A DNA stretch of 64,000 bases, from assembly GCF_004322775.1 (NCBI RefSeq), contig NZ_CP036403.1, positions 1 through 64,000 of the forward strand, written 5' to 3'. The stretch is from Ornithinimicrobium sufpigmenti. Lineage in GTDB: Bacteria; Actinomycetota; Actinomycetes; Actinomycetales; Dermatophilaceae. This document shows positions 8,938-48,363 of this stretch, piece after piece; within the stretch, counting starts at the first letter, position 1; the number at the start of each line of letters is the position of its first letter. The notes beneath the pieces are model-generated. The model saw only the letters and a program-made list of their open reading frames with translations, made no database searches and was not told the DNA's origin. Position numbers and translations under genes: made by a program.

Positions 8938-11673
8938 ATGGCTGACGACGAGACCCCAGACCTGCCGCAGAACCCCGACCCCACGACCGCGAAGGTCGAC
9001 CGCTCGCCCGGGGAGATCGACAAGGTCGACATCGTCGACCTCAACACCGAGATGCAGCGCAGCTACATCGAGTACGCGATGAGCGTGATCGTCTCCCGGG
9101 CGCTGCCGGACGTGCGCGACGGTCTGAAGCCGGTGCACCGGCGCGTGCTCTACGCCATGTATGACGGCGGCTACCGTCCCGACCGCGGTTTCTCCAAGTG
9201 CGCGCGCGTCGTCGGCGACGTCATGGGCAACTACCACCCGCACGGTGACTCGGCGATCTATGACGCCATGGTGCGGCTGGTCCAGCCGTGGTCGCTGCGC
9301 TACCCGCTGATCCAGGGCCAGGGCAACTTCGGCACCCCGGGCGACGAGGGCGCCGCCGCCCCGCGGTACACCGAGGCACGGATGGCGACGCTGGCCATGG
9401 AGATGGTGCGCGACATCCGCGAGGACACCGTCGACATGGTCGACAACTACGACGGGCGCAACAAGGAGCCCTCGGTCCTGCCCTCCCGGTTCCCGAACCT
9501 GCTGGTCAACGGCTCGGCCGGCATCGCGGTCGGGATGGCGACCCAGATCCCGCCGCACAACCTGCGCGAGGTCGCGTCCGGCGCACAGTGGCTGCTGGAG
9601 CACCCGGAGGCCACCCGTGAGGAGCTGCTGGAGAAGCTGCTCGAGCTCATCCCCGGCCCCGACTTCCCCACCGGCGCCCTCATCATGGGCAAGAAGGGCA
9701 TCGAGGACGCCTACCGCACCGGCCGTGGCTCGATCGTCATGCGGGCCGTCGTCGAGGTCGAGGAGATCCAGGGCCGCACCTGCCTGGTCGCGACCGAGCT
9801 GCCCTACCAGGTCAACCCCGACAGCCTGGCCAAGAAGATCGCCGAGCTGGTCAAGGACGGCCGGATCCACGGGATCGCCGACCTGCGCGACGAGAGCTCC
9901 GGTCGGACCGGCCAGCGGCTGGTCATCGTGCTCAAGCGGGACGCGGTCGCCAAGGTCGTGCTCAACAACCTCTTCAAGCACACGCAGCTGCAGCAGAACT
10001 TCGGCGCCAACATGCTGGCGCTGGTCGACGGGGTGCCGCGCACCCTGCCGATCTCCGCCTTCGTCCGGCACTGGGTCGACCACCAGGTCGAGGTCATCGT
10101 CCGGCGGACCCGCTACCGCCTGCGCGACGCCGAGGAGCGCATCCACGTCTACCGGGGCTACCTGAAGGCCCTGGACCAGCTCGACGAGGTCATCGCACTC
10201 ATCCGTCGCAGCCCCAGCGCGGACGAGGCCCGGGAAGGGCTGATGGCGCTGCTGGAGATCGACGAGATCCAGGCCCGGGCGATCCTGGACCTGCAGCTGC
10301 GCCGCCTGGCCGCCCTGGAGCGCCACGAGATCCAGCAGCGTCACGACGAGCTGCAGGCGATGATCAGCCAGTACGAGGCGATCCTGGCCTCGCCGGAGCG
10401 TCAGCGGGAGATCGTCTCCGAGGAGCTGACCGAGATCGTCGACAAGTACGGCGACGACCGGCGGTCCACGATCGTGCCCTTCGCCGGCGACATGTCGATG
10501 GAGGACCTCATCCCCGAGGAGGACGTGGTCGTCACGATCACCCGCGGGGGCTACGTCAAGCGCACCCCGGTGCGGGAGTACCGTGCCCAGAACCGTGGCG
10601 GCAAGGGTCGCCGCGGGGCGGCGCTGCGGGCGGACGACGTGGTGGAGCACTTCTTCGTCACCAACACCCACCAGTGGATGCTCTTCTTCACCAACCAGGG
10701 CCGGGTCTACCGGGCCAAGGCGTACGAGTTCCCCGAGGGCGGGCCGACCGGCAAGGGTCAGCACGTGGCCAACCTGATGGCCTTCCAGCCGGACGAGCGG
10801 ATCCGGCAGGTGCTGACCATCGAGGACTACGAGCAGGAGCCGTACCTGGTGCTGGCCACCCGCAACGGCCTGGTGAAGAAGACCCGGCTCACCGACTACG
10901 ACTCCCGCCTGTCCCGCGGCCTCATCGCGATCAACCTGCGCGAGGGTGACGAGGTCGTGGGTGCCGCGCTGGCGTCGGCGCAGGACGACGTGGTGCTCGT
11001 CTCCCGCGGCGGCCAGTCGGTCCGCTTCACCGCCACCGACGAGGCGCTGCGCCCCATGGGCCGCGCCACCTCCGGCGTGACGGGTATGAAGTTCCGCCGG
11101 GAGGACCAGCTGCTCGCCATGCAGGTCGTGCCGCAGGGTGAGGACCCCTATCTCTTCGTCGTCTTCGAGACCGGGATGGCCAAGCGCACGCCGGTCTCCC
11201 AGTACCGCGTCCAGGGCCGCGGCGGCCTGGGCATCAAGGTGGCCAAGACCAACGGCAAGGGCGGCGACCTGGTCGGTGCCCTGACCGTCCATGAGGGCGA
11301 CGAGGTCATGGTCGTCATGGAGCGAGGCAACGTCGTGCGCTCCCCCATCGACCAGGTGCGCTCCACCGGCAGGGACACCGCCGGCGTCATCTTCGCCACC
11401 CCGGGCCGGGGCGACTCGATCGTGGCCGTGGCCCGCAACCCCGAGGCCACCGCGGAGGTGGAGGAGGAACTGGAGACGGCCTTTGCCGAGGCCGAGGCCG
11501 CTGAGGAGCTCGCCGAGGAGCTGGTGGAGGACCACACGGTGGACGGCGCGGATGACGGCCCGGGCGCTGACGATGCCGTACCGTCGGAAGGGTCCGAGGC
11601 ACACCTGGTCACGGACCTGCCGGACGCCGAGGAGGCGTCCGAGGACGATGACGGCACAGGAGACGATGCATGA
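8938..11673 (+). CDS. gyrA: DNA gyrase subunit A
   Basis: GyrA cleaves and reseals DNA through an active-site tyrosine (Y144 in APRYTEARM) and wraps DNA with its C-terminal beta-pinwheel, which bears the GyrA box-like [10 protein letters not shown]. The quinolone-determining region reads GDSAIYDAM, with Ser105 and Asp109 at the positions of E. coli S83 and D87, so no common resistance substitution is visible. The protein is 911 aa. After the pinwheel it carries an acidic Glu/Asp/Ala tail of about 80 residues. The stop overlaps the next start by four bases (ATGA). Confidence 0.97.
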
Positions 11674-15026: not shown

Positions 15027-15099
15027 GGGGGCGTGGCGCAATTGGTAGCGCACCTGCTTTGCAAGCAGGGGGTTAGGGGTTCGAGTCCCCTCGCCTCCA
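15027..15099 (+). tRNA. tRNA-Ala (TGC), island insertion site
   Basis: A complete 73-nt cloverleaf: acceptor GGGGGCG / CGCCTCC, anticodon stem CCTGC/GCAGG around loop TTTGCAA (anticodon TGC), T arm TTCGAGT. The bases after the discriminator A are CCC, so CCA is not encoded. The 3' half, from the last base of the anticodon 5' stem on, is repeated exactly at 48171. The gene is therefore the attachment site of the island and has been restored by the incoming element. Confidence 0.96.
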
Positions 15100-15123
15100 C
15101 CCAGGTCAGAGGCCCTTCCCGCT
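15057..15123. repeat. attL of the genomic island
   Basis: This 67-bp stretch is identical to 48171-48237. It runs from the anticodon stem of tRNA-Ala through its 3' end and into the downstream hairpin. The flanks diverge on both sides. Tyrosine integrases classically use such tRNA 3' segments. Confidence 0.92.
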
Positions 15124-15141
15124 TTGCGGGGAGGGCCCTTT
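15111..15141 (+). terminator. Rho-independent terminator after tRNA-Ala
   Basis: GGCCCTTCCCGC (15111-15122), loop TTT, GCGGGGAGGGCC (15126-15137), with one G-T wobble, followed by CTTTC. Confidence 0.8.
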
Positions 15142-15253
15142 CGTGCCCCGTACCCCAGGAAAGTACGGCTGCAAACGCGTCGATCATGGGCCTGACCTGC
15201 AGGTATGGGGTCATCTGCGGCGCCCCGAGACGTCCGGCGAGCTGACGGTCGCC

Positions 15254-16450
15254 TCATGTGCTGAGAAGGACGTCGAGGACGGCAGGGGCGAAGAAGCGGC
15301 GGCGGTAGGTCTCACCCGTTGACGAGAGGACGCCGAGGTCGACCAGCTGAGCGACGAGGCCGTTGGCCCGGCCGTAGGACAGCTCTAGGTCCCGCTCGAC
15401 CTGCCGCACCGTGAAGGAGGGGTGTGCGACCGCGTAGTCGACGAGGGTGTGGGCCTTGTCCGCGCGGAGAGACGAGGCGCGGACCCTCTCCTTCAGCTTG
15501 GCATGCACATCGACGAGCCTCAGCATCTGCCCACGGGTGGTCTGGGCCGACTCCTCGAGGCCCTGGGCGAAGAAGGAAATCCACTGGTCCCACTCGCCGG
15601 CGCAGCTCACCGCCAGGAGGCGGTCGTAGTACTCGGTGCGTCGTGCCTCGAACCAGGGCGACACTGTGAGGGTCGGCTCGCTGAGGACCCCAGAGGCATA
15701 GAGCTGCAGGACGATGAGAAGGCGGCCGATGCGTCCGTTGCCGTCGTGGATCGGGTGCAGGGTCTCGAACTGGTAGTGCGAGAGCGCCGAGACGACCACC
15801 GGGTCCATGGTGTCCTTGTGGTCCGCGGCCATCCAACGCACCAGGTCGCACACGTTCGCCTCGAGGTCCAACCCGGGAGGAGGGGGGACGAACCTGGCGG
15901 CCTTGACCGGGAGCTCCCCGACGGCAGCCGTCCGGTGCTGCCCGATGACGACCTGGATCGTCCTGATCTGCCCGGACGAGGGGCTCTCCGCCGGGGTGCC
16001 GCGGACCAGCGTTTGCTGCAGCTCGGCGAGCATGGGGACGGACAAGGTGCGCCCTTCGTCCACCCAGCCGAAGGCCAGGTCGGCCATCCTCACGAAGTTG
16101 AGCACCTCGCGCATCGTGAGGCTCACCGGACCCTCGTCGTCGGCGGTCAGCACCGCGTGCAGAGGCTCGTACGTGCCCTTTAGCGCCGAGGTGCTCTGGG
16201 CCTCCCTCTGCAGCGAGGGTCGCCGGAGCAACTGGGGGTTGGGCAGCTGACGCGCCGTGCTGTCCAGTGCCGCCAGGGCAGCGCGCGCGTCGGCGACTCG
16301 CATCCATGTCTGAGAGCTCAGGTCGGGCAAGTCCTCCGTCAGGGGCGCGGGAACGAAGGCGGAGTGTGTCCACTCCCCGGATCGTGGGTCGACACCCGAG
16401 ATCGGCACGAGAGTCCCGGTGCTCTTGGTCCCGATCATTTCGATGTCCAC
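15254..16450 (-). CDS. Fic-domain protein with altered inhibitory motif
   Basis: Fic proteins transfer AMP or other phosphate-linked groups to proteins. This 398-aa protein has the usual bacterial layout: an N-terminal Fic_N region, the Fic core with HPIHDGNGRIGR at 232-243 (catalytic His232, anion hole Gly/Asn, Arg243) and a C-terminal winged helix (about 335-395). The class II inhibitory motif normally reads [S/T]xxxE[G/N]. Here the segment is STSALKGTYE, so Lys91 (codon AAG) replaces the glutamate. Start is GTG 16450, with an ATG four codons in. It is the first gene inside attL. Target unknown. Confidence 0.92.
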   Translation of the reverse strand: MDIEMIGTKSTGTLVPISGVDPRSGEWTHSAFVPAPLTEDLPDLSSQTWMRVADARAALAALDSTARQLPNPQLLRRPSLQREAQSTSALKGTYEPLHAVLTADDEGPVSLTMREVLNFVRMADLAFGWVDEGRTLSVPMLAELQQTLVRGTPAESPSSGQIRTIQVVIGQHRTAAVGELPVKAARFVPPPPGLDLEANVCDLVRWMAADHKDTMDPVVVSALSHYQFETLHPIHDGNGRIGRLLIVLQLYASGVLSEPTLTVSPWFEARRTEYYDRLLAVSCAGEWDQWISFFAQGLEESAQTTRGQMLRLVDVHAKLKERVRASSLRADKAHTLVDYAVAHPSFTVRQVERDLELSYGRANGLVAQLVDLGVLSSTGETYRRRFFAPAVLDVLLST

Positions 16451-16470: not shown

Positions 16471-16833
16471 TCACAGCAACTTCGTCGGTGTGATGTGCAG
16501 TAAGCGGACAAGTCTCACCCTGGCGCGTGGCTCGGCCGCGTGGGTGGTGTCCTGGCGCCACACGTGAGAGCACTCAGCGCAGCGGTACCAGCGGACGGTG
16601 ATCAGCAGCGTGCTGGGGCGCCACCCGAACGGCTCGTGCGTCAGCTTTCTGGTCACGGTGTCCCGCAGGACGCCTTGGCAGCCGCATCGCCGGCACCAGT
16701 CGTCCGGTTCGACGACCCGGCAGGCGAGCACCGCACGGTCGGGTTCGAGCAGCTGGCCGGCGACCTCCAGTCCGAGGCCGTCCAGGCGGGCGAAGGTGGT
16801 TAGGTCAGGGCGCGTGAAGGTAGCGTCAGCCAC
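16471..16833 (-). pseudogene. ISL3-family transposase N-terminal fragment
   Basis: The 120-aa reading frame matches only the N-terminal zinc-finger part of ISL3 transposases: DWCRRCGCQGVLRDTVTRKL, then RWYRCAECSHVWRQDTT and AAEPRAR. After about residue 107 the similarity ends and the DDE catalytic region is absent. Upstream, the reverse complement of 16921-16943 reads GGCTCTTCACAGATGAGGG, resembling an ISL3-type terminal repeat, so 16471-16943 is probably one end of a truncated element. Confidence 0.75.
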
Positions 16834-17096: not shown

Positions 17097-17690
17097 TCAC
17101 CAACCAGCAGGACACGCGGACAAGAACGCCGAAACAGGGTCGGTCGACGTCGCAACGGCTAAGTACGAACGCCTTTCTGGAACTGGGAGGACGCTACCGA
17201 CCATCCACACATTCGCCCAAGCTCCAACGACCGTTGCGGTTCGGCCGCATGCATCTTGAAAGTAGTGGCCGCGCAGATTGATGCTCCAGTGAACGTCGAA
17301 CAAGGCCTGGCGGGCGGAATCCGCATCGCTGTTGGGAGGCATGCGTCTTAAACGATCGGCAAAAAGTTTGAGATCGTGAGCCACCTTGGCATGTCGGATA
17401 TACCCAAACTGTTCCGCATCCCAGTCCCGCAGCCCTCCGTTTCGTAAGTTCGAACCTACGAGGCAAGTGTTAACTGCCAACAGTACGTCCACGGACATAT
17501 CAGGCGGGTCAAAGCCATTCAGTAGGGCCACCGCAGCAAGGACGCGTCTTCGCACGTCTTCGGTCGAGCCTCCGGCGACCGGCCGCGGCTTGTGCGCTGA
17601 GGACGAGGTGTCCACAGACCCAGTTTCGTACGTTCGAGACAGCCTCGACACGCAGGCCAGCACACGCTCTTCCGATTGGCCAGCGATCAC
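17097..17690 (-). CDS. Divergent Fic-like protein
   Basis: The last gene of a four-gene operon. From GTG 17690, which overlaps the HIT stop as GTGA, it encodes 197 aa. The C-terminal half has a Fic-like core: HYFQDACGRT at 142-151 parallels HPFxDGNGRt, keeping the His, Phe, Asp and Gly-Arg but replacing P, the first G and N. The following VGAWANVWMVGSVLP and ERRSYLAVA fit the helices after a Fic motif. The N-terminal 40 residues are low complexity. I infer a Fic-fold transferase of unusual chemistry; catalysis is not certain because the Gly/Asn of the anion hole is changed. A longer start at 17774 would overlap the HIT gene by 88 bp. Confidence 0.6.
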   Translation of the reverse strand: MIAGQSEERVLACVSRLSRTYETGSVDTSSSAHKPRPVAGGSTEDVRRRVLAAVALLNGFDPPDMSVDVLLAVNTCLVGSNLRNGGLRDWDAEQFGYIRHAKVAHDLKLFADRLRRMPPNSDADSARQALFDVHWSINLRGHYFQDACGRTATVVGAWANVWMVGSVLPVPERRSYLAVATSTDPVSAFLSACPAGW

Positions 17691-18163
17691 GAACCCCTCA
17701 CAGGCGGCACCTGAGGATTGAGTCTGGCATATGCTCGAAGCAAGAAACCTCCGCGCATATCTTTCTTGATCCACCAGCGCAAACCGTACCCAGGAAGAGG
17801 TCCGTCAGCTGCTCTTTGCAATACGTGGCAGTGAACGTGCTCCACTGACTGACCCGCGAGTCCGCCGAGATTCCAAACGACGTTTGTACCAACCCCCCGC
17901 TCCGCAGCATTCCATTCTCTATGGACTTCACGGAGTGCCGCGTGGATAGAGAGTATATCCGCGTCCAGGAGTGCTTCAAATTCGGTCACGTGCCGGAGCG
18001 GGGCGATCATCCACGACCGGACAGCACTGTCCTCGTGTGGCCAAACTCCGACCTCTCCCAAGTGTCGAATTGGCCTGCGCGTACAGAATATACACGAACC
18101 AGGCGTGGTCGAAGTCGAGGTGTTTGGCACAGACTGTCCCGAATAGGATCGACTAACCAGCAT
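17687..18163 (-). CDS. HIT-family nucleotide hydrolase/transferase
   Basis: A 158-aa protein with the hallmarks of the histidine-triad family: CIFC at residues 24-27 and GQSVEHVHCHVLQR, giving His109-x-His111-x-His113. HIT enzymes hydrolyse or transfer nucleoside monophosphates from dinucleotides, aminoacyl-AMP or AMP-protein-like substrates. Start ATG 18163 overlaps the preceding gene by 11 bp; GTG 18130 is an alternative that keeps the CIFC motif. Sandwiched between a kinase-HD protein and a Fic-like protein, it may process the nucleotide product of its neighbours (inference). Confidence 0.8.
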   Translation of the reverse strand: MLVSRSYSGQSVPNTSTSTTPGSCIFCTRRPIRHLGEVGVWPHEDSAVRSWMIAPLRHVTEFEALLDADILSIHAALREVHREWNAAERGVGTNVVWNLGGLAGQSVEHVHCHVLQRAADGPLPGYGLRWWIKKDMRGGFLLRAYARLNPQVPPVRGS

Positions 18164-18503
18164 ATAACACACCAGGCACCCTGAGCATGCCCAGTTTACC
18201 GTTGGGTAAGGAAGCAGGACAACTAAGTGGAATACGCGGGCCGAAGCGTGCACCGCTGGCGAAGTTCAGAATTGATCCGCGCAACCGTTCAAGCCCACCA
18301 CCGTCGTGGCCCTCAACATCCTTCACTACCACGGCAACGCGAGAACCCTCCACTACCGTGGGCGAATGGACGATTAGGATCAAGCCGTCGGAGCATTCGA
18401 TACGAAACTCCCGTGCCGCTGAATCCGCGACGAGGAAGGTGCCCGCAGCAGAACTGTCCTGCTTAGGAGCCTCGACCTTGTACGCCGTACTCACCGTCTT
18501 CAC
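18153..18503 (-). CDS. Small unknown protein of kinase-HD operon
   Basis: A 116-aa protein with no family I recognise. The pattern of short alternating hydrophobic stretches (TFLVAD, FRIEC, LILIVHS, RVAVVVKDVEG) suggests a mostly beta fold, perhaps OB- or beta-barrel-like. There is no membrane segment or catalytic motif. Its GTG start is embedded in the kinase stop (ATGTGA, four-base overlap), and its stop lies inside the HIT gene. It is therefore clearly an operon member, not a chance frame. Confidence 0.65.
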   Translation of the reverse strand: MKTVSTAYKVEAPKQDSSAAGTFLVADSAAREFRIECSDGLILIVHSPTVVEGSRVAVVVKDVEGHDGGGLERLRGSILNFASGARFGPRIPLSCPASLPNGKLGMLRVPGVLYAG

Positions 18504-21058
18504 ATTCCAACCTCCGCTTTCAGGCTCCGAACCAGGAGCTGGGCCACTTGTTGGCGCATCTCGACATCGGCGACGAGATGTGAGAATCGAGGGCTAACAA
18601 AAATCCTGCTGATCTTGTTAACGTCTTCGTGCTGCTCCTTTAGCCCCCCATATAAGGGGGACTCCGTCTTGAGGTCGTTCCCTTGGCCTGCTACCTGCTT
18701 TCGGTCGTAAACGAAAACCTTCCCGCCGCGCTCTCCAGAGGGCTTCTCCCGCTCCTTAGAGGGAATGTCCAGTAAAAGCTCGCCCTCCCTGATTCCACGG
18801 AATTGCGAGATTGCGCTTAGTTCTTCCGCCAGGTTGGACTGGATTGCGAGAGTCTGATCATAGGAACGCTTGACGAGATGGTTATTCAGTTCCCTCGCTT
18901 CATCGACTCGGGAGGGGTGCACCTCGCATACTCGCTTATACAGAGAGCGACCCCCGCCGAGGAGCCCACGTATCGGATTCAATTCTTTGTCCCCCTGAAC
19001 TGTGGAGAACAGTTCGCTGATCGAGTTCAGGCATTCGTCTCGCGAAGAGAATAGCGCCCTCGTAACGTAGTCGGGTAAGTTGAACGAGCCCTCCGCTAAG
19101 AGCCGCATGATCGGATACTTGACCATCGCAGTTATGGCGCGGTTATTATAGTGCCAGTACACCTGAGAGAGCATTTGGTTCCGGTTTACCGCCACTGATT
19201 GCGCTGCCTGCACCCCTGCTCGCCGTATGCCGATGACAGGGTTTGGCGCAACTCTAGAAAAGTCGTCGGGCGTGGGCATGCACACGTTGCCCAAGATGCC
19301 GTCCAGATCCACGCCCATCCCATAGGGGACCCCAGTTCGTTGGGCGTCCTCCACAAGGTAGGCAGTCTTGTCAGCGTCTATGTCGGACGAGAGAACCGCC
19401 GCCAACACCCTTTGGGCGGGGGTGGCGTCCTCCGGCTTCTTCTGAGCATAGATGACGTCGTGAAGGCGGATCAGCGAGTGCGCGGTGGACTCTCCGAATC
19501 CCTCGATGAGTATCTCCCAAAGCGTCGCATACGGCCCCTCGCTTTCTTCTGTGAACGATGCGGCGCGGGCCTGGATCGCCTCACCAAAGTTGCCGCGTAG
19601 ACGGCTGTTAGGGCTGCCTAAGACATCGGCAAAGAGCGTATCGTCCGTGGGTATGTCTGCCTCGAGTTCGCGCCAACTGGCGGCCGTCCTGTCCGCAGCT
19701 TGATCAGTTGCGAGATCCTCGAACATATGGCTCAATTGAAAGTGGCCCACGTCATGAAGGAGCGCCAATAGCAGCGTGGCTTCGAGATCTTCTCGCTCGG
19801 CCTGACGGCGGAATCGACTATCGTTCAGGAGGTGGCTGACGTAGTACCGGGTGTTTCGCAGGACGGCGACGCTGTGACTAAAGCGCGTGTGTGTGGCACC
19901 GGGAAAGGTGAGGTAGGTCGCTTCTAATTGGTGGACTTGATGAAGCCGGTTCAGAAGACGATGGTCTGTCAGCTCACTGATACGTCGAGTCATTACAGCC
20001 CTGCCCGTGGCGGTGGGCACCGAATATTGGAACTCCGCAGCGAGTGATAATTCCGGAACACCAGCGGGCGAAAGGTAGTTGCGATGCAGCTTCTTGAAGT
20101 CAGCATACACCTCGTCGACTGTGCTGTAACCGTCCCCTGTGGGGGATGAGCGTAAGTCGAGAATCATTTCGTCTAGGACTTGGACGCCTTGTTCTCCCAA
20201 GGTCCGGCCCAGTTTCGTTCGAACCTCCTGGGACCACGGCTCAGCGGGCGAGATAATTTTCTCCAGCAGGACACCCAGAGTGTGCAGCTCATGTTGCGGA
20301 ACGACGTCGCGCAACTCCTGTGGTGAGTAGGTCCCACCATTCAGGTATGGCAAATGCCGCGCGTGGGTGATGTCGGAAGTGCTTATAAATCTGCGGCGGC
20401 TACGTGGGTCAATGTCGAGCTCCAGCGTCGTTGCCGACGGGGTCTCGTTAGCTTCCGTGTGTAGAACTTGCGCAGCGCCCCAATCGAGCAAAACGACGTC
20501 GTATTGCTTGGGGCGGGCGGCCCGCATTCGTATGTTATCGAGCTTGATGTCGCAATGATATATGCCATGATGGTGTAGATAGCTAACTGCATCTAGCAAA
20601 TCACTTACGATCTTGTAAACGTCGTCGCCAGTGATGGTGGTCTGCTTCAACGCGTCTTCTAGCATGGGACCCGCCACGTGATCCGTAATCAGATAGTGCC
20701 ATTCCCGCCCGGCGTCATCGGTGTGTATGCCATCCTCGTGAAAGATCGAGATGTGGGAATGGGACAACTGCGACAGAATGGCCCGCTCGGCAGCGAACGT
20801 TTGCTCGAAATCTTCCTTTCTTCGACCCGTTCTGCCTTCATCTAACTTGTTCAGCGTAAGGAACTTCACGGCACGCGGCTGTTCATGCGTGCCGTATAGG
20901 CAGGGGTAGACACTGCCGGCCCCCCCTTTTCCAAGCGCCTGGGCCCTCTTGGTCCTTGGGGTCTTCTTTCGCTCCGCCGAGCAAATCACGTGGAGACGCC
21001 CCTCCCCGAAGGCTTCACCAAGGCGCAGGGTCAAGGTCGGCTCGGTCACCTTCGGCAT
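18500..21058 (-). CDS. Ser/Thr kinase-HD phosphohydrolase fusion
   Basis: The 852-aa product joins two enzymes. Residues about 35-330 are a Hanks-type kinase: glycine loop GKGGAGSV (43-50), Lys65, Glu91, catalytic loop HCDIKLDN (168-175) and DWG (192-194) in place of DFG. Residues about 345-700 resemble SAMHD1/dGTPase HD domains: HTRFSHS (His395), LLHDVGH (His435-Asp436) and SSDIDADK (Asp563, equivalent to the SAMHD1 metal Asp in DVDK). The last 150 residues match nothing I know. AGGAGG lies five bases before ATG 21058. It heads a four-gene operon with overlapping stops and starts. A dNTP-depleting or nucleotide-modifying abortive defence role controlled by phosphorylation is inference. Confidence 0.85.
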   Translation of the reverse strand: MPKVTEPTLTLRLGEAFGEGRLHVICSAERKKTPRTKRAQALGKGGAGSVYPCLYGTHEQPRAVKFLTLNKLDEGRTGRRKEDFEQTFAAERAILSQLSHSHISIFHEDGIHTDDAGREWHYLITDHVAGPMLEDALKQTTITGDDVYKIVSDLLDAVSYLHHHGIYHCDIKLDNIRMRAARPKQYDVVLLDWGAAQVLHTEANETPSATTLELDIDPRSRRRFISTSDITHARHLPYLNGGTYSPQELRDVVPQHELHTLGVLLEKIISPAEPWSQEVRTKLGRTLGEQGVQVLDEMILDLRSSPTGDGYSTVDEVYADFKKLHRNYLSPAGVPELSLAAEFQYSVPTATGRAVMTRRISELTDHRLLNRLHQVHQLEATYLTFPGATHTRFSHSVAVLRNTRYYVSHLLNDSRFRRQAEREDLEATLLLALLHDVGHFQLSHMFEDLATDQAADRTAASWRELEADIPTDDTLFADVLGSPNSRLRGNFGEAIQARAASFTEESEGPYATLWEILIEGFGESTAHSLIRLHDVIYAQKKPEDATPAQRVLAAVLSSDIDADKTAYLVEDAQRTGVPYGMGVDLDGILGNVCMPTPDDFSRVAPNPVIGIRRAGVQAAQSVAVNRNQMLSQVYWHYNNRAITAMVKYPIMRLLAEGSFNLPDYVTRALFSSRDECLNSISELFSTVQGDKELNPIRGLLGGGRSLYKRVCEVHPSRVDEARELNNHLVKRSYDQTLAIQSNLAEELSAISQFRGIREGELLLDIPSKEREKPSGERGGKVFVYDRKQVAGQGNDLKTESPLYGGLKEQHEDVNKISRIFVSPRFSHLVADVEMRQQVAQLLVRSLKAEVGM

Positions 21059-21309
21059 CTGTCCTCCTGCTCGCGTGGGCCGCCCGTGCGACGTTGCATC
21101 GATCCTCTCACCTCACACCGACAGACGTAAGGGACACGCGCGCGGCGGGCCGAGGGGCCCGTTGAGGGAGGGGGAGGGCGGCGGCGGTTGCGTTTGCCCC
21201 CGGTGACGTCCCTTCCAGTGGTGCAAGTCGCGTCCTCGCTGACGTGAGGGGACCATCGCGCGAGTCTTCGCGTGTACCCGCCGAGGAAGACGTGAAGGGA
21301 AGCCACGCG

Positions 21310-21528
21310 ATGGCCCTGTCCCAGTCTGCACTGCTAGAGATCCTCGACGCGATGAAGGAGGCCGATGTGGCCGAACGAGTCCGAGAGTTTGCAGCCACGA
21401 TCTACCAGGCGCTGATCGAGGCCGAGCTGACCTCGATGATCCGGGCCGAGCCGCACGAACGTACCGAGGCCCGGACTGCTCAGCGCAACGGGCACCGGTC
21501 CCGGACCCTATCCACCGCCGCCGCCCCA
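21310..21528 (+). pseudogene. IS256-family transposase N-terminal fragment
   Basis: About 73 codons match the start of IS256/Mutator-type transposases (MALSQSALLEILDAMKEADV, then AELTSMIRAEPHERTEART and QRNGHRSRTL). The frame then runs into unrelated sequence just before a duplicated SDR gene. The catalytic DDE region is gone. It is a different lineage from the complete IS256-type element at 45976-47337. Confidence 0.75.
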
Positions 21529-21607
21529 TGGTGCGCACTGGAGCATGGTCCCGGTCTTCCTCCGAACGATCTGCGTAGCGGGAACCTGGGCGGTGACAGG
21601 ATGGGGC

Positions 21608-22414
21608 ATGAGCTCCCATCCCTCCCGCGGCGTCCTGGTCACCGGCTCCTCCCGGGGGGTGGGGGCCGCGGTGGCCCGCGCCTTCGCGGCGCGGGGTGAC
21701 CGGGTCGTCGTCCACTACCTGGGCAGCGAGGCGGCCGCGCACGAGGTATGCCGTTCTCTCCCGGGCGACGGGCATGCCGTCGTCCAGGCAGACCTCGCCG
21801 ACCCGGACGCCGTTCAGCGGCTGGCGACCGAGGCGATCGGGGCCCTGGGCCGGGTCGACGTCCTGGTGAACAACGCGGCCATTCTCACCGCTCCGTGGGA
21901 AGGCAGGGGCCGGCGCGGCGACCACCCGCTGGAGGAGACCTCCTACCCCGAGTGGGTGAACATATGGCGGCGCACCCTGGAGACCAACCTGCTCGGCCCG
22001 GCCCACCTGACCTGGCAGGTGGCCCGCCACATGATCGACGCGCCGCCCGCAGACGGCGTCCCCGTCGGGCGGATCGTCAACGTCGGCAGCCGCGGCGCCT
22101 ACCGGGGCGAACCGGACATCCCGGCTTACGGCGCCAGCAAGGCCGGCCTGCACTCCTTCGGCCAGTCGATGGCGCTGCGCCTGGGTCGGCACGGGATCGC
22201 GGTGACCTCGGTAGCCCCGGGCTTCATCGAGACCGAGATGGCCGGGTATGCGCTGGCAGGGGACCGGGCGGCGGCCACCCGGGCGCAGAGCCCGTTCGGC
22301 CGGGTCGCCCGGCCCCACGAGGTCGCCGTTGCCGTGCTCGCACTGGCCGACCCACGGGCGGAGTGGGCCTCGGGGGCGGTCCTCGACCTCAACGGGGCCA
22401 GCCACCTGCGCTGA
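21608..22414 (+). CDS. SDR oxidoreductase, island copy
   Basis: A 268-aa short-chain dehydrogenase/reductase with Rossmann motif TGSSRGVG (11-18), NNAA and catalytic Ser plus YGASK (Y-x-x-x-K). Comparing translations, it differs from the chromosomal copy at 48364 in only 7 residues. Nucleotide similarity starts about 15 bases before the ATG and ends about 35 bases after the stop. The copy is flanked by an IS256 fragment on the left and an integrase scar on the right. Substrate unknown. Confidence 0.9.
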   Translation: MSSHPSRGVLVTGSSRGVGAAVARAFAARGDRVVVHYLGSEAAAHEVCRSLPGDGHAVVQADLADPDAVQRLATEAIGALGRVDVLVNNAAILTAPWEGRGRRGDHPLEETSYPEWVNIWRRTLETNLLGPAHLTWQVARHMIDAPPADGVPVGRIVNVGSRGAYRGEPDIPAYGASKAGLHSFGQSMALRLGRHGIAVTSVAPGFIETEMAGYALAGDRAAATRAQSPFGRVARPHEVAVAVLALADPRAEWASGAVLDLNGASHLR

Positions 22415-22441
22415 CATCTCGCCGGGCCGGTCGTGGTGTGC

Positions 22442-22512
22442 CTACCCGGCCGGGTCATCACCCAACCGTCCGCCGAGCTGGCGCAGCGCCCCGCGAGTGG
22501 CCTGGGACTCCG
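22442..22512 (-). pseudogene. Integrase 3'-end scar
   Basis: Read on the minus strand, the last codons before TAG (22442-22444) give ESQATRGALRQLGGRLGDDP-AG. This closely matches the C-terminus of the intact integrase encoded at 23364 (SSQATREALSQLGGRLGDSS-AG). Similarity stops further upstream. It is the remnant of a related integrase gene fused to the 3' flank of the SDR copy. Confidence 0.8.
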
Positions 22513-23363: not shown

Positions 23364-24584
23364 TCACCCCGCCGAGCTATCACCCAACCGCCCGCCGAGC
23401 TGGCTCAGGGCCTCGCGCGTGGCCTGGGAGGAGACCTGGGAGTAGACCTCCATGGTCATCGAGATCCTGCTGTGCCGCAGCACCGCCATCGCCACGCGCG
23501 GGTGCACGTCGAGCGAGACGAGCAAGCTCGCGCAGGTCCCACGCGTGGCGTGGACCGGGACGATCGGGACACCGGCCTTGCGCGCCCGGGTCTTGAACGC
23601 CGTGTGGAAGTTGCGCGGGTCCAGCGGGTCGCCGAGGCGGGTGGTGAAGACGAGGCCGCAGTCGCCCCACATGTCGCCGGCGGCGAGCCGTCGCCGGCTC
23701 TCCTCAGCCCGGTGCCGACGCAAAGCCGCCACGGCGATCTCCGGCAGGGGCAGTGGCGCGTCCGAGGAGGGGGTCTTTGTCCGCCGCCGGAGCAGCTGGC
23801 CGTCGACCCGCTGGACCTGCCAGGCGATGTACGCCTCGCCCTGCTCCAGCTCGACGTCCTCCCACGCCAGTCCGAGCACCTCACCACGTCGCAGCCCGAG
23901 CACGAGGAGGAGCACGTAGGCGGCATACATCGCATCCCCGGCAACACGGGCGGACTCGAGGAACCGCCGTGCGTCGTCCACCGACCACACGGTCGATCGC
24001 TTCGCCCGGGGCACGGGCACGCGCACGAGCGCGGCCACGTTGCGGAAGACGAGCTCCTCCCGCATCGCCTGGGTCAGGGCTCCGCGGAGCACACGCCACG
24101 CCTGGTGGACCGTCCACTCCGAGGCGACCTCGCGGCAGCAGTGACCGCGTGCGCAGCACTGCGGCTCCGGTCGTGCGGCGTCCTTGCCCTGGAAGCAGCA
24201 CTGGCACCGCACCCGCACCTCGTCGACCCAGGTCTGGACGTCGCGGACCGACAGCTTCTCGAGCTTGCGGTCCCCCAGGTCTGGGACGATGTACAGCCGG
24301 GAGAACATCTCGTAGTTGCTCGCCGTGGCCGGCGAGAGCCCGGGGCGGACGGTCTCCGCCAGCCACTGTTCGAGGAAGTCGCGCAGCTTGGGCGAGACCG
24401 GGACGACGGGGCCGCGCCGCGCCTGCTCGTGCAGCCGCAGCCACTTCTCGTGCACCTCGGGCCGAGTCTTCCCGTAGACGGACTTGCGCTGGCGCCGGCC
24501 CGCGGGGGTGGTGATCCACACGTGTGCTGCGAAGCCGTTCCGGTACGGGTAGATCGACCCCTCCCCGTTGGCCCGGCGGCTCAC
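23364..24584 (-). CDS. int: Tyrosine site-specific integrase
   Basis: The 406-aa recombinase has an N-terminal arm-binding domain (GSIYPYRNGFAAHVWI), a core-binding SAM-like domain and the catalytic domain with Arg in LGLRRGEVLGL, HATR (H-x-x-R), HSRISM and the nucleophile in MEVYSQV. A Cys-rich insertion (about residues 160-190: CQCCFQGK, CCARGHCC) in the core-binding region may bind metal and is uncommon. GTG 24584 overlaps the excisionase stop (GTGA). It is the likely catalyst for the tRNA-Ala integration, although it lies 8 kb inside the left end. Confidence 0.92.
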   Translation of the reverse strand: MSRRANGEGSIYPYRNGFAAHVWITTPAGRRQRKSVYGKTRPEVHEKWLRLHEQARRGPVVPVSPKLRDFLEQWLAETVRPGLSPATASNYEMFSRLYIVPDLGDRKLEKLSVRDVQTWVDEVRVRCQCCFQGKDAARPEPQCCARGHCCREVASEWTVHQAWRVLRGALTQAMREELVFRNVAALVRVPVPRAKRSTVWSVDDARRFLESARVAGDAMYAAYVLLLVLGLRRGEVLGLAWEDVELEQGEAYIAWQVQRVDGQLLRRRTKTPSSDAPLPLPEIAVAALRRHRAEESRRRLAAGDMWGDCGLVFTTRLGDPLDPRNFHTAFKTRARKAGVPIVPVHATRGTCASLLVSLDVHPRVAMAVLRHSRISMTMEVYSQVSSQATREALSQLGGRLGDSSAG

Positions 24585-24829
24585 GGCCAGTCCGCCTCTG
24601 CCTCGGCCGCCCGCTTGGCGACGTACTCGTCGACCCACGCCGGCAGGATGCGCCGGGACCCGCCGTCCTTGAGCGAGCGCAGGTCGCCGGAGATGCACAG
24701 CATCCGCACCTTCGTGGGCCCGTAACCGAGCATCTCCGCCACCTCGGGCACGCTGTACCACCGCCGCTGCAGCGGCCCGACCGGTGCTTTGCTCCGCTGC
24801 CCCGAACTCCCGCTTGCCATCGTTGACAT
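24581..24829 (-). CDS. xis: Excisionase-like winged-helix protein
   Basis: An 82-aa protein with a MerR/excisionase-type helix-turn-helix: WYSVPEVAEMLGYGPTKVRM, then CISGDLRSLKDGGSRRILPA. Such proteins bend att DNA and direct excision. ATG 24829 has GGGAG seven bases upstream; GTG 24835 is an alternative. It precedes the integrase and is coupled to it by a four-base overlap, the standard integrative-element arrangement. Confidence 0.85.
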   Translation of the reverse strand: MSTMASGSSGQRSKAPVGPLQRRWYSVPEVAEMLGYGPTKVRMLCISGDLRSLKDGGSRRILPAWVDEYVAKRAAEAEADWP

Positions 24830-24835
24830 GTCCAC

Positions 24836-25140
24836 TCCCTTCGTCAGGGACCAACCTCCAGTAGGCCAGATCCCGTACTTACCCGAAAGGCACTCAACCG
24901 TCCCTGTGGATAACCCACCCGACGACGAATTTGCCTCATCCCCTAAAGCGACGAGATCCCCCGCTGGGACTCACTTCTTGGTGACTGTTTTCGAGCAGCC
25001 CTGCGACCTGCGGTTATGTGAGTTCTCCGGTGGCCTCCGGACCGACAGGGGAGGACGACTGCCTGCACGCCGTCTTGTCCGCCGATCCACTAGCCTGGCG
25101 GAGAATGGGCGCCCAGACACAAGGAAGCCAAGGACTGACG
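24836..25140. other. Gap upstream of xis, nothing recognised
   Basis: This 305-bp stretch should carry the divergent promoters of the integrase operon and of the gene at 25141. I see no coding frame, repeat or tRNA in it. Confidence 0.4.
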
Positions 25141-25856: not shown

Positions 25857-28800
25857 ATGGGTGTGATGACGTTGCACAAGCTCGCTGCGGGGTCCGGGTA
25901 CACGTACCTGACGAAGCAGGTCGCTGCCCACGACGCCACCGAGAAGCGGCAGGCCGGTCTCGCGTCCTACTACGAGGAGAAGGGCGAGTCGCCCGGTCGG
26001 TGGCTCGGCACCGGGCTGGCCGGACTCGACCTGGCCGTCGGCGACGTGGTGAGCGAGGAGCAGATGAGGCTGCTCTTCGGGCAGGGCCGCCACCCCCGCT
26101 CCAGCGAGCACGACGCCGCCGCTAAGGACTGGGGTGCGTTGGGGCGGGCGTTCCCTACGTTCGACGCCACGTCCTTGCGGCAGGTCACGGCGCGGGCGTT
26201 CAGCGAGCACAACACCAACCAGGGACTGTCGTGGAACGCACCGATCCTCCCGGAGGAGCGAGCACGCATCCGGACCCAGGTCGCCCGGGAGGTCTTCGAG
26301 CAGCGGCACGGCCGCGCCCCCGTGGACGAGGCCGAGCTGACGACGTTCGTCGCCAAGGCGTCGCGGCCGGCACAGGTGCCGGTGGCCGGGTTCGACCTGA
26401 CGTTCTCACCGGTGAAGTCAGTCTCGACTCTGTGGGCCCTCGCCCCACCGGAGATCGCCAGGCAGGTGGAGGCTGCGCACCACGAGGCAGTGCACGCGAC
26501 CCTGGAGATGCTGGAGGCCGAGGTCGCGTTCACCCGTGTCGGCAAGGGCGGCATCCGCCAGGTCCCCGTCACCGGCCTGATCGCGGCGGCCTTCGACCAC
26601 CGCGACTCCCGCACCGGGGACCCGGACCTGCACACCCACGTCGTAGTCTCAAACAAGGTGCAGTCCCTGCCCGAGGAGGGCGGGCGGTGGCTGACCCTGG
26701 ACGGGCGGATGCTGTTCAAGGCCAAGGTGATGGCGTCCGAGCACTACAACACCCACCTCGAGGCCGGCCTCGTCGAGCGCCTCGGCGTCCGCTTCGCCGA
26801 CCGCCCCACTCCGGAGGGCAAGCGCGCGGTGCGGGAGATCGACGGGATCGACCCGGCCCTGCTCGCGGCGTGGTCGTCCCGGCGGCAGGCGATCGAGGCC
26901 CGGCAGCGCGAGCTCGCCTCGGCCTTCCGGGCCGACCACGGGCGCACCCCCACGACCATCGAGTCGCTGGTCCTGGCGCAGCAGGCGAACCTGGAGACCC
27001 GCCCGGGTAAGCACGAACCCCGCTCCGAGGCCGAGCAACGCCAGACCTGGAGGGCACAAGCCGAGGCCGTGCTCTCCACCACGGGACGCCCCCTGGAGGA
27101 GATGGTCGCAAGTGCGGTGGGGGCGCTGTGGGGGCGCGACCGGATATGCGGTGGGGAGGCTGGCATCGTCGCAGGTGGATGGGTGGGAGCGCTCCCGGGA
27201 CACCTCCGGGGACGCGGGGGTGGTGGGGACGTGCGCCCCCAGGTCGTCGCCGCCCGTGTCCTGTCGGTGCTCGAGGGGTCGCGGGCGACGTGGCAGGTGT
27301 GGCACGTGCGCGCCGAGACCCTGCGCCAGCTCCGCACCGCTCAGGTCCCCCTGGACAAGCTCGAGGCGTACCGCCGGAGCTGGGCGAGCCCGAGGTTCTG
27401 CGCCGCCCGGACGGGCAGCCCGCCCACGTCGTGCACGGCAGTCAGGCCTACACCTCGAAGGCGATCCTGGCCGCCGAGGACGAGCTACTCGCCCTGGGGC
27501 TGCGCCGCGACGGCCGCCAGGCCGACCCGGACGTGGTCGAGGCCGTCTTGGCCGCCTCGAGCGTGGACGGTCCGAGCCTGGACCGGTCGCAGGTGGCGAT
27601 GGTCCGCAGTCTCGCCACGAGCGGGTGCCGGGCACAGGTCGCCCTCGCTCCGGCCGGGGCCGGCAAGACCGCCGCGCTGCGGGTGCTGGCCCGGGCCTGG
27701 GAGGCCTCCGGCGGGACCGTCCTCGGGCTGGCGCCCACCGCTGTCGCGGCCGACGAGCTCGGCCGCGCCACCGGCATCCCGGCCGACACCATCGCCAAGC
27801 ACCTCCACCACACCCCCGCGGGCAGTGCGGTCGGTCCGGGGATGTTGGTGCTGATCGACGAGGCCGGGATGGCCGGCACCCGCGACCTGGCGGTCGTGGT
27901 CCGCCACGTCGTCGACGCGGGCGGTTGCGTGCGGCTGGTCGGGGACGACCAGCAGCTGGCCGCCGTGGCTGCCGGCGGGATCTTCCGGGACCTGGCCGAG
28001 CAGGGCCACTCGCACGGCACCACCGCCACGCTGACCGAGCTGCACCGGTTCACCGATCCCGCCGAAGGCGCGGCCACCCTCGCGATCCGCGACGGCGACC
28101 CCGCCGCGCTGGACCACTACCTCGACCGGGACCGGGTCCACGCCGGTGACACCCGGGACGTGATCGAGGCGGCGTACGCGGCCTGGGCCGCCGACCGGCA
28201 CGCCGGCCGGTCCAGTCTGCTGCTGGCCGCGACCCGGGACACTGTGCGCGAGCTGAACCAGCGCGCCCGGCAGGATCGCCTCGACACCGAGTCACCGCCC
28301 GGACGCGAGGTGGCCCTGGCCGATGGCACCCGCGCCAGCGCCGGCGACACCGTGATCACCCGCCGCAACGACCGCACCCTCCGGACCGGTGACGGGTCCT
28401 GGGTCAAGAACGGCGACCGATGGCGCGTCGTCGCAGTCCACCTCGACGGCGCCGTCTCGGCCGAACGCCACCGCAACGGGCCGGGAACCAGGTTGGCCCA
28501 CGTCACCCTCCCGGCCTCCTACGTGGGCGAGCACGTGCAGCTCGGGTATGCCAGCACCATCCACGGCGCCCAGGGCGCCACCGTCGACAGCACGCATTCG
28601 GTTCTCACCGGAGCGGAGTCCCGGCAGGCTCTGTACGTCGCCCTCTCCCGCGGGCGCCAGAGCAACCACCTCTACTTGGGCACGCCCACCGCCTCGCTGG
28701 ACGACGTGGTGCCCGCGGTTCAGGACACGGCCGTAGAGCCGCGGCAGGTGCTTACCGACATTCTCGCCCGCGACGGCCGCGCCCAGTCGGCGACAACGGT

Positions 28801-29581
28801 CGAGCGCGGGGACGCAGCCCAACTGCTGCGGCAGGCGGTGCTGGCCTACCAGGACGCCCTACCCGTCTTGGCCCAGCAGCACCTTGGCGTAGAGCGCATG
28901 GTGGGGCTGGACGACGCGCTCGAGCGGTGGCTACCGGGCGTCACTGAGCAGCCGGCCTACCCGCACCTGCGCGGCCAACTCGCGCTGCGCTGGATCGACG
29001 GCACACCACCGCAGAAGGTGGTTGAAGAGGCGACCTGGTACCGCGGCACCCAGTCCCTCACCGAGGCCGACGACCCCGCCGCCGCCCTCGCCTGGCGCAT
29101 CGCTGGCGCCACCCCACCCTCGTACCGGGACGCGCCCCTGCCCTGGCTGCCTGACATTCCACCCGTCCTGCGGCAGGACGCGGAGAAGTGCGAGTACCTC
29201 GACCGGCTCATCCAGCGGATCCACGACCTCGAGCAGCGCGTCGCCGACGAAGCCAAGCAGTCAAGTGTGTCCGACCGGGTGCCCTGGCAACGCACTCTGC
29301 CCCCGGACGTCGACGGCCAGCTCATCGGCGACCTCGCCGTCTGGCGCGCCGCGCAAGGCATACCGCCGACAGACCCCAGCCCCATCGGTCCGCCTTTGAA
29401 GGAACCTGAAACCGCCAGGCACCAGAGCCGACTCGTTCGGCGGCTCAGCGCGCCGTCGGCGGTTTCCGGCAGCCGCACGGCAGGCGCTCAGCGCGAGAGG
29501 TTGCGAACCAGCGAGCGACAAGCCGAGCGTCAAACCTTTCATGAACGCCCCGCACGCGAGGTGTCCGGTCCGTCGCGGTGA
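25857..29581 (+). pseudogene. MobF (TrwC/TraA-like) relaxase-helicase, frameshifted
   Basis: The N-terminal reading frame (from 25857, or better ATG 25866) begins MTLHKLAAGSGYTYLT and continues with the MobF relaxase domain including the HUH motif in DPDLHTHVVVSNK. Near 27370-27385 the similarity jumps to another frame. There the RecD-like helicase resumes as ELGEPEVLRRPDGQ and runs through Walker A APAGAGKTA, Walker B LVLIDEAGMAG and a C-terminal UvrD-like YASTIHGAQGATVDS to the stop at 29581. Compared with family layout, roughly twenty codons plus a frame are missing at the junction. The relaxase half could still be made; the helicase half cannot be joined to it. Confidence 0.85.
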
Positions 29582-44563: not shown

Positions 44564-45438
44564 CCGGACTCGCAACACCACTAGACGAGAAGAAGACCCT
44601 GGGCGGGGTAGCATCGTCGGTCCGCCTCACGCCTGCCTTCCGGCTCGGCAGCGCCGGTCTGGACGCCCAGGACTACCTGACAGAAGTCAGCGGCCTGCGG
44701 ACCCACAAGCTGGAGCCGGTCCACGTCCTGCTGGAGGAGGTTATGGCGCGGTACGACCAAGCTGAGGCAGCCGCGTCCGACTCGTGGCTCGGTCCCAGGC
44801 TGCACGCTGTGCTGCGCCTTTCGCGGCGTGAGGCCGGAAACCGTGCCGTCTGGCGCTTCCTGGGCCTGTGGGGTGCCGACTACACCCGCTGGCGGTTCGG
44901 ACCACCAGTTGGAGAGGACGACCCCGAGCAGGCCGCCAAATCGGAGCGCTTCGTGGGGCCAAGCAGCAAGCACGCACTCGCGCGCCTGTGGTGGATGGTC
45001 GAGGTCTTTCGCAACGGCAAGAACTACGCTCCGGCCGCGCTCGCCCTAACGAACCAGGACATCGTCAACAACCTGTTCCGCATGCGCATCTCGAACCACC
45101 GCCCAACAGCGTTGGCGGCTCTGGCGGTGCTCCCGTCGAGCGCGGACGGGACGATGCTCACCGGCGGCCGTGAAGCCAACGCTCTTGCCAAGGCCGCCAA
45201 CGCTGCGGCCTCCACACTGGTGCTCGACCTCATAGGGCCGGACATCGAACTAGATGCCTCGGCGAGGGTGCAGTGGGAGAGCGTCCGTGGTGACCACGAT
45301 CCTCGGGTGTACTTCGACAAGCTGCCCGAGGGCCCTGACGACGGGGAGGCGCCTGAGGAGTCCGTCGAGGCCATGAAGGTGTTGCTCACCGAGCTTATGA
45401 CCGGGGCGAAGGTACGGGGCAGGAAGTCGTCGGACTGA
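44560..45438 (+). CDS. DUF6339-like protein, third gene of GHKL cassette
   Basis: A 292-aa helical protein. The segment LHAVLRLSRREAGNRAVWRF with WGADYTRWRF, followed by ERFVGPSSKHALARLWWMVE, looks like the DUF6339 family as I remember it; that match is not certain. No enzymatic motif is seen. GTG 44560 overlaps the previous stop (GTGA). With the two preceding genes it forms a compact three-gene unit immediately downstream of a methyltransferase and a NaeI-like endonuclease. Confidence 0.7.
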   Translation: MTGLATPLDEKKTLGGVASSVRLTPAFRLGSAGLDAQDYLTEVSGLRTHKLEPVHVLLEEVMARYDQAEAAASDSWLGPRLHAVLRLSRREAGNRAVWRFLGLWGADYTRWRFGPPVGEDDPEQAAKSERFVGPSSKHALARLWWMVEVFRNGKNYAPAALALTNQDIVNNLFRMRISNHRPTALAALAVLPSSADGTMLTGGREANALAKAANAAASTLVLDLIGPDIELDASARVQWESVRGDHDPRVYFDKLPEGPDDGEAPEESVEAMKVLLTELMTGAKVRGRKSSD

Positions 45439-48170: not shown

Positions 48171-48237
48171 CTTTGCAAGCAGGGGGTTAGGGGTTCGAGT
48201 CCCCTCGCCTCCACCCAGGTCAGAGGCCCTTCCCGCT
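48171..48237. repeat. attR of the genomic island (partial tRNA-Ala)
   Basis: Exact 67-bp copy of 15057-15123. It holds only the 3' part of tRNA-Ala, so it is not a functional tRNA. It is followed by a hairpin (GGCCCTTCCCGC / GCGGGGAGGGTC, 48225-48251) related to, but diverged from, the terminator at attL. Confidence 0.92.
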
Positions 48238-48363
48238 CCGCGGGGAGGGTCTTTGTCGCGGTCCTACCCCAGATAAATGCTGGAGCCTCCAGCGCGGCTG
48301 TCGTCGACGTGTGACACCTGGTTGCCTCCGCAACTCGCCCCCGCCGGGTGACAGGATGGGAGT

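What the first reader, a model, noticed from the sequence alone, without database searches (positions are those of the whole stretch)
17097..21058. Coupled kinase-HD / unknown / HIT / Fic-like operon, a candidate new defence system
Seen: four minus-strand genes with stop-start overlaps (4, 11 and 4 bp), in a low-G+C patch of a defence island. The first gene fuses a complete Hanks kinase (K65, HCD170, DWG192) to a SAMHD1-like HD domain (H395, H435-D436, D563). It is followed by a 116-aa unknown protein, a HIT hydrolase (H109/H111/H113) and a divergent Fic-like protein (HYFQDACGR). Known: dNTPase HD proteins deplete nucleotides in phage defence, Fic proteins AMPylate, and HIT proteins remove or transfer nucleotides. 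Inference: a phosphorylation-gated nucleotide-depletion or modification system in which the HIT and Fic-like proteins write and erase a nucleotide mark. I know of no described system with this four-part set.
Basis: partly seen in the sequence, partly recalled or inferred. Interest (0 to 1): 0.88.

Follow-up and report, generated by a model that had tools for sequence, protein, structure and literature searches.

The report
Kinase-gated nucleotide-destroying enzyme with Fic partner
A rare bacterial gene cluster on a mobile island joins a protein kinase to a SAMHD1-like nucleotide-destroying enzyme and adds an unusual Fic-type protein; it looks like a new variety of anti-virus defence, but its activity has not been tested.

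Summary
The four overlapping genes are real. Gene 1 (852 aa) joins an intact Hanks kinase to an HD domain of the SAMHD1/EF1143 dNTPase family; its metal site, HE dyad and phosphate/sugar contacts are invariant in 32 aligned rows. Gene 4 has a confident Fic fold but a non-canonical loop, HxFxDACGRxxT: cysteine replaces asparagine, the second arginine is absent and no inhibitory motif occurs, in 7 of 7 sequences. Gene 3 is a HIT protein. Gene 2 is an orphan. The operon lies in a ~33-kb tRNA-Ala island with SoFic, Mrr and NaeI-type genes; a congener has the site empty. Kinase-HD genes are rare and patchy. The Fic-like gene recurs beside kinase-HD in Streptomyces xylophagus, and 3 of its 5 database relatives lie on contigs of the same length as kinase-HD contigs. 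The four-gene set was not seen elsewhere: Fic-like gene in 2 of 6 readable loci, HIT and gene 2 in 1 of 6, with limited sensitivity. Best reading: dNTP-depletion defence gated by a fused kinase, with a Fic-like partner. AMPylation is not supported by the loop. New variant of a known kind; untested.

The parts
18500..21058 (-). Kinase-HD fusion, 852 aa: Hanks kinase (~38-205; K65, E91, HCD170, N175, DWG192) plus SAMHD1/EF1143-type HD domain (~340-850; R392, H395, H435, D436, H444, E447, D563, K564, Y567, D571, R626, Y634)
18153..18503 (-). Orphan 116-aa protein, GTG start in a GTGA overlap with gene 1; fold unknown
   Evidence: no Pfam/NCBIfam/PADLOC match; 29 candidates, none at E 0.001; single-sequence model pLDDT 39
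17687..18163 (-). HIT-family protein, 158 aa, CxxC plus H109-V-H111-C-H113
   Evidence: Pfam HIT 4.8e-8; PDB HIT protein 6af2 E 1.2e-5
17097..17690 (-). Fic-fold protein, 197 aa, non-canonical loop H142-YFQ-D146-ACG-R150-TAT
15057..15158 (+). tRNA-Ala 3' end plus 57 bp, one copy of the att-like direct repeat (left island end)
48171..48272 (+). Other copy of the att-like repeat (91% over 103 bp; right island end)
   Evidence: same junction without the island in G1490
23364..24854 (-). Tyrosine integrase of the island (not part of the proposed system)
   Evidence: Pfam Phage_integrase 4.7e-15
15254..16450 (-). Fic protein of PADLOC type SoFic (HPIHDGNGRIGR), neighbouring defence gene, not coupled to the operon
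   Evidence: PADLOC SoFic 2.6e-80; Pfam Fic_N and Fic

Best explanation
A mobile anti-phage module built round a dNTP triphosphohydrolase with its own kinase. The N-terminal Hanks kinase gates, in cis or between subunits, the SAMHD1/EF1143-type HD domain. On infection the HD domain hydrolyses dNTPs and starves phage DNA replication. The Fic-like protein is the recurring partner, found beside the kinase-HD gene in two separate branches of the family. It probably attaches a phosphoryl-linked group to the kinase-HD protein or to a shared target, using a donor whose gamma-phosphate need not be gripped, or it acts as a non-catalytic nucleotide-binding regulator. The HIT protein and the 116-aa protein are local accessories; the HIT protein could remove that group. 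Shown: gene structure, domains, invariant active sites, Fic fold (predicted model), island setting, rarity, recurrence of the kinase-HD/Fic pair. Inferred: dNTPase activity, kinase gating, phage trigger, Fic chemistry, HIT erasure.
For: An HD profile (window HD half plus 16 HD-only relatives) matches PDB 2o6i at 3.2e-86 (labelled 'HD domain protein'; the name EF1143 is recalled) and SAMHD1 at 4.7e-60. Metal ligands H395/H435/D436/D563 and H444/E447, which stand at the spacing of CloA's HE dyad (H117/D118, H126/E129; PMC12265719), are invariant in 32 fusions. D571, R626 and Y634 are also invariant there and fall on SAMHD1's aspartate, arginine and tyrosine in the printed profile alignment, which I take to be D319, R366 and Y374 (roles in PMC5207538). 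Kinase K65/E91/H168/D170/N175 are 32 of 32, D192 31 of 32; best defence-library matches PD-T4-6 9.8e-22 and mad6 9.9e-21. Defence setting: SoFic, Mrr, NaeI and DruM/MTase matches in the same island; in S. xylophagus an NNH7-NACHT NTPase and a PDC-S37/MTES_1575 helicase-nuclease follow the kinase-HD gene; in G568 the gene follows an integrase-like gene, by eye. Empty island site in a congener. Patchy presence: 1 of 396 and 2 of 396 genomes, own included. Precedent for regulated dNTPase defence: Clover; SAMHD1 phosphorylation ablates its tetramer (PMC4592219 abstract).
Against: No activity, phage phenotype or dNTP measurement exists. HD substrate choice cannot be read from the motif, and D571, R626 and Y634 vary among HD-only relatives (13, 12 and 11 of 17 rows). 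The Fic-like gene was not found in 4 of 6 readable loci. The kinase-HD homologue in G1576 has a degraded kinase motif and E to Q at the dyad position (read by eye), so gating is not universal. Scans of viral contigs, phages and plasmids gave no relative of the whole fusion. The kinase's substrate is unknown.
Confidence: 0.45

Rival explanations
1. Toxin-antitoxin-like arrangement: the Fic-like protein is the growth-stopping effector that modifies a host target, and the kinase-HD protein (with HIT) senses infection and holds it in check or reverses the mark.
For: [quoted passage not shown] The Fic-like protein has no inhibitory motif of its own (0 of 7), so it would need an outside restraint. 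It is the partner seen to recur.
Against: It was not found in 4 of 6 readable kinase-HD loci, which suits an accessory better than the effector. Its loop lacks residues of the AMPylation motif. No FicA-like antitoxin was recognised: the 116-aa protein matches nothing.
Confidence: 0.2
2. Signalling module: the HD domain cuts a nucleotide second messenger or a nucleotidylated protein, not dNTPs; kinase, Fic-like and HIT proteins form a cell-regulatory relay carried on an island.
For: HD proteins have varied substrates (general knowledge; PMC8177086 seen only as a search listing). Partners vary: a putative membrane protein gene directly downstream in G1576 and in the Thermoplasmata locus (by eye), and a nucleoside hydrolase gene nearby in the latter.
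Against: The profile's best PDB matches are dNTPases and kin, and SAMHD1; their catalytic residues are kept.
Confidence: 0.2
3. No four-part system: the kinase-HD protein works alone (or with the Fic-like protein), and the HIT and 116-aa genes are cargo that became coupled by chance in this island.
For: HIT and 116-aa genes in 1 of 6 readable loci; the 116-aa protein is an orphan; transposase fragments flank the operon (21244-21699 by Pfam; 16471-16833 by eye only).
Against: 4, 11 and 4-bp overlaps suggest translational coupling. The closest relatives (P0002-P0006) sit on contigs that I could not read, so HIT and the 116-aa gene may be conserved there.
Confidence: 0.15

Closest known systems
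Clover (CloA dGTPase + CloB nucleotidyltransferase)
   Same: A defence HD dNTPase under the control of a partner; same HD and HE-dyad spacing (H435/D436, H444/E447 against H117/D118, H126/E129)
   Different: Control here would come from a fused kinase and a Fic-like protein; no CloB-type nucleotidyltransferase recognised in the operon; the HD domain was matched to 2o6i and SAMHD1, and CloA and SpdGTPase were not compared directly
SAMHD1 / EF1143 (COG1078) dNTP triphosphohydrolases
   Same: Profile match 3.2e-86 to 2o6i and 4.7e-60 to SAMHD1; active-site residues kept; SAMHD1 is phospho-regulated
   Different: SAMHD1 is phosphorylated by separate kinases (recalled); here a kinase domain is part of the same chain
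Defence kinases PD-T4-6, mad6, PglW (BREX)
   Same: Kinase domain similarity (E 9.8e-22, 9.9e-21 and 1.9e-9)
   Different: These matches stop within the kinase part (residues 37-204, 40-202 and 82-198)
Non-AMPylating Fic proteins AnkX (HxFxDANGRxxV) and Doc
   Same: Fic fold; alanine in the loop and no second arginine, as in AnkX
   Different: Cysteine in place of asparagine; AnkX's phosphocholination and Doc's kinase activity are not shown here
SoFic
   Same: Fic protein counted as defence; a copy (15254-16450) sits downstream in the same island
   Different: That copy carries Fic_N and HPIHDGNGRIGR; the 17097 protein has neither

Membership tests
SAMHD1/EF1143-type HD dNTPase | H...HD...D metal site | tested here: met
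   H395, H435, D436, D563 in 32 of 32 fusions and 17 of 17 rows of the HD alignment
SAMHD1/EF1143-type HD dNTPase | HE catalytic dyad | tested here: met
   H444, E447 in 32 of 32 fusions; same spacing as CloA H126/E129; SAMHD1 itself has D at the second place
SAMHD1/EF1143-type HD dNTPase | phosphate and sugar contacts like SAMHD1 R366, Y374, D319 | tested here: met
   R626, Y634, D571 in 32 of 32 fusions; same columns as R, Y, D of SAMHD1 in the printed profile alignment; no structural superposition
SAMHD1/EF1143-type HD dNTPase | hydrolysis of dNTP to deoxynucleoside and triphosphate | not testable with these tools
   needs purified protein
Hanks-type protein kinase | VAIK lysine, alphaC glutamate, HRD, catalytic Asn, DFG | tested here: met
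   K65, E91, H168, D170, N175 32 of 32; D192 31 of 32; written HCD and DWG in the window
Fic fold | Fido/Fic core fold | tested here: met
AMPylating Fic protein | HxFx(D/E)GNGRxxR loop | tested here: not met
   HYFQDACGRTAT; C for N in 7 of 7, second R absent in 7 of 7 (T/S in 6, K in the S. xylophagus one), A for first G in 6 of 7
AMPylating Fic protein | inhibitory [S/T]xxxE[G/N] helix (in cis) | tested here: not met
   0 of 7 sequences
Pfam Fic (PF02661) | gathering score 24 | tested here: not met
   12.7 bits, E=0.25
Clover defence system | Pol-beta-type nucleotidyltransferase partner (CloB) | tested here: inconclusive
   genes 3 and 4 are HIT and Fic; gene 2 matches nothing
HIT hydrolase/transferase | HxHxH triad in a HIT domain | tested here: met
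   H109/H111/H113 by eye; Pfam HIT 34 bits over a cut-off of 21.5

The most novel reading that the evidence does not exclude
A self-contained phospho-switch dNTPase immune system: kinase and SAMHD1-like effector in one chain, set on or off by a Fic-family enzyme of new chemistry (DxCGR loop, no second arginine) that loads a non-ATP or diphosphate-type donor, with a HIT protein reversing the mark.
Probability: 0.15. Interest if true: 0.85.

Novelty: new variant of a known kind. Interest (0 to 1): 0.6.

Why it matters
dNTP depletion is an immune strategy shared by bacteria and animals, and SAMHD1 is known to be phospho-regulated, but by kinases outside the protein (recalled). A family in which the kinase is fused to the dNTPase would allow that control to be studied in one protein. 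The invariant cysteine in the Fic loop marks a Fic subfamily whose chemistry is directly testable. I found no paper on this gene set in the searches made (open-licence PMC library only, most subscription papers missing).

Tried and rejected
Led nowhere: homologue search with the 116-aa protein (29 candidates, none at E 0.001) and its single-sequence fold (pLDDT 39, not searched further). Viral-contig scans with the kinase-HD alignment and the Fic-like alignment gave 12 and 37 pattern matches, none confirmed, and P0028 gave no pattern match. Plasmid and phage searches gave only HD-part matches at 27-40% identity, covering at most 49% of the query (3 and 4 records). The Fic-like profile was found in 1 of 394 genomes of the class, the window's own.

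Considered and rejected: AMPylation as the default activity of gene 4 (loop not canonical); gene 1 as housekeeping (too rare); the 155-aa ORF after the Actinoplanes kinase-HD gene as a relative of the 116-aa protein (no convincing tblastn match).

Limits: searches with the kinase-HD alignment scored only the 2 best candidates per genome, and 4. G568 was found under the 2-candidate setting. The carriers G1163-G1165 were recovered (3 of 3) where all candidates were scored, a different setting. (0 of 392) holds no positive control and by itself shows nothing. In one search only the 7993 candidates sharing most words were scored. A1 used 32 of P0001-P0057 (near-duplicates, fragments and others left out). 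Equal contig length is indirect evidence of linkage; as a control, the 75 contig lengths are all different (recounted by eye), against 3 exact matches between the 5 rows and those 75. Flanks of the readable loci are unequal (L007 about 3.6 kb and L008 about 2.4 kb on the short side), so an absence there means absence from the stretch held.

Full report
Observation. The four minus-strand genes are present at 17097-21058. With an internal ATG for the HIT gene and an internal GTG for the Fic-like gene, overlaps are 4, 11 and 4 bp; genes 2 and 4 start with GTG, and genes 1/2 and 3/4 overlap in a GTGA. Gene 1 has an AGGAGG ribosome site just before its ATG (read). GC is 57-59% with GC3 0.56-0.67, against GC3 0.95 for the gyrA-like ORF and 0.89-0.90 for the neighbouring SoFic and SDR genes (gyrA and SDR named by eye): probably recently acquired DNA.

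Gene 1. Pfam gives Pkinase, HD and HD_assoc_2. The homologue search returned 75 proteins, the window's own included; P0001-P0057 align over 60-100% of the query and 55 of these 57 carry a Pfam kinase domain, P0058-P0074 are HD proteins without one, and P0075 is a kinase without HD. In an alignment of 32 of these fusions 57 columns are invariant. Among them are K65, E91, H168, D170, K172 and N175 of the kinase and R392, H395, H435, D436, H439, H444, E447, D561, D563, K564, Y567, D571, R626 and Y634 of the HD half; D192 is kept in 31 of 32. An HD profile built from the window's HD half and 16 HD-only relatives finds 2o6i/3irh/4lrl (EF1143, name recalled) at 3.2e-86 and SAMHD1 at 4.7e-60 and weaker in the PDB. 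H444/E447 stand at the spacing of the HE dyad named for CloA; SAMHD1 has aspartate at the second place. In the printed SAMHD1 alignment the columns of D571, R626 and Y634 hold D, R and Y, which I take to be SAMHD1 D319, R366 and Y374, whose roles are in PMC5207538. Among the 17 rows of the HD alignment these three are kept in 13, 12 and 11, so they are less general than the metal site. I expect a working dNTP triphosphohydrolase. The kinase part resembles defence kinases PD-T4-6 and mad6.

Genes 2 and 3. Gene 3 is a HIT protein; its best PDB matches are 6af2 (HIT domain-containing protein, 1.2e-5) and AP-4-A phosphorylase 3wo5 (5.2e-5). Gene 2 matched nothing and its model is not usable.

Do the genes travel together? 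Of five homologues of gene 4, three lie on contigs of 4937, 5496 and 6711 bases, exactly the lengths of contigs holding kinase-HD proteins P0002, P0006 and P0005; these contigs could not be read here. In Streptomyces xylophagus (L006) a 231-aa relative of gene 4 (8991-9686) stands 14 bases before the kinase-HD open frame (from 9701). On the tree the kinase-HD proteins with a known or length-inferred Fic-like neighbour fall in two separate branches (94/92 and 100/99) inside one actinobacterial group, so the pairing is old or repeated; the label test itself is not significant (183 of 500 shuffles as low). Of six readable kinase-HD loci (window, L006, L007, L008, L011, L032) the Fic-like gene is in 2, and HIT and gene 2 in 1, by tblastn. 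This is a single-sequence test: L006's copy scored only E 0.003 in it, and a diverged HIT could be missed. A profile search for gene 4 in the whole genomes behind L007, L008 and L011 found none (0 of 3); G1576 was not searched with the profile.

How common? Hits at E 1e-30: 1 of 396 genomes of the order (itself), 2 of 396 of the phylum (itself and G568), 0 of 392 of one large genus (no positive control), 2 of 200 of the Actinoplanes family (itself and G1576), 1 of 60 relatives of G568 (itself). The GTDB contig scan confirmed 3 of 61 pattern matches.

Setting. The window has tRNA-Ile and tRNA-Ala. The tRNA-Ala 3' end plus 57 bp (15057-15158) recurs at 48171-48272. In congener G1490 the tRNA-Ala is followed within about 100 bases by the SDR gene that here lies beyond 48 kb, and in G1483 about 3 kb of other DNA lies between. 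So 15.1-48.2 kb is an island in a hotspot. It holds an integrase, a TraI-like gene in two frames, SoFic, an Mrr-type nuclease, a cytosine methylase (DruM/MTase_II) and a NaeI-type nuclease. A second, 95% identical SDR copy at 21592-22450 suggests that two islands stacked. In S. xylophagus the pair is followed by an NNH7-NACHT NTPase and a PDC-S37-like helicase-nuclease; in G568 the gene follows an integrase-like gene, named by eye.

Reading. I think it most likely that the kinase-HD protein is the effector of an anti-phage system and depletes dNTPs, with its kinase domain as the switch. SAMHD1 phosphorylation is known to control tetramer formation (PMC4592219 abstract), and Clover shows that bacteria use regulated dNTPases in defence. 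The Fic-like protein is a recurring regulator or co-effector; HIT and gene 2 look local.

Novelty. No described system with this set was found in eight literature searches or among the PADLOC 2023 matches. The components are known kinds; the fusion plus DxCGR Fic partner is a new variant of regulated dNTPase defence, if it is defence.

Noticed in passing
window 15057-15158 and 48171-48272: Att-like direct repeats (91% over 103 bp) from the tRNA-Ala 3' end bound a ~33-kb island; the site is empty in congener G1490 and holds ~3 kb in G1483, so it is an insertion hotspot.
   Followed up: yes
window 21592-22450 and 48347-49205: Two 95% identical copies of an SDR-family gene (named by eye) in direct orientation, suggesting stacked islands or a duplication at the same site.
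   Followed up: partly
window 15254-16450: Fic protein matching PADLOC SoFic (2.6e-80), separated from the operon by a short transposase-like fragment (16471-16833; ISL3-type by eye, no convincing Pfam match).
   Followed up: partly
window 41457-45438: Three consecutive genes after the NaeI-type nuclease: HTH protein matching PDC-M33A (3e-17), an unknown protein and a DUF6339 protein; candidate defence cluster.
   Followed up: partly
window 25857-29581: Relaxase (by eye)/TraI-helicase-like gene split over two reading frames, so the mobilisation gene looks broken.
   Followed up: no
L032 8428-10743 and 7883-8431: Divergent kinase-HD homologue with degraded kinase motifs, overlapped by 4 bp at its end by a putative membrane protein gene (both by eye).
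   Followed up: partly
L008 2414-6995: Archaeal (Thermoplasmata MAG) kinase-HD gene followed by an unknown protein and a nucleoside hydrolase (IU_nuc_hydro 1.5e-60), suggestive of nucleotide breakdown.
   Followed up: partly
L007 9410-12756: Actinoplanes kinase-HD protein with an extra N-terminal stretch of about 160 residues and a small overlapping ORF downstream, with no convincing tblastn match to the window's 116-aa protein.
   Followed up: partly
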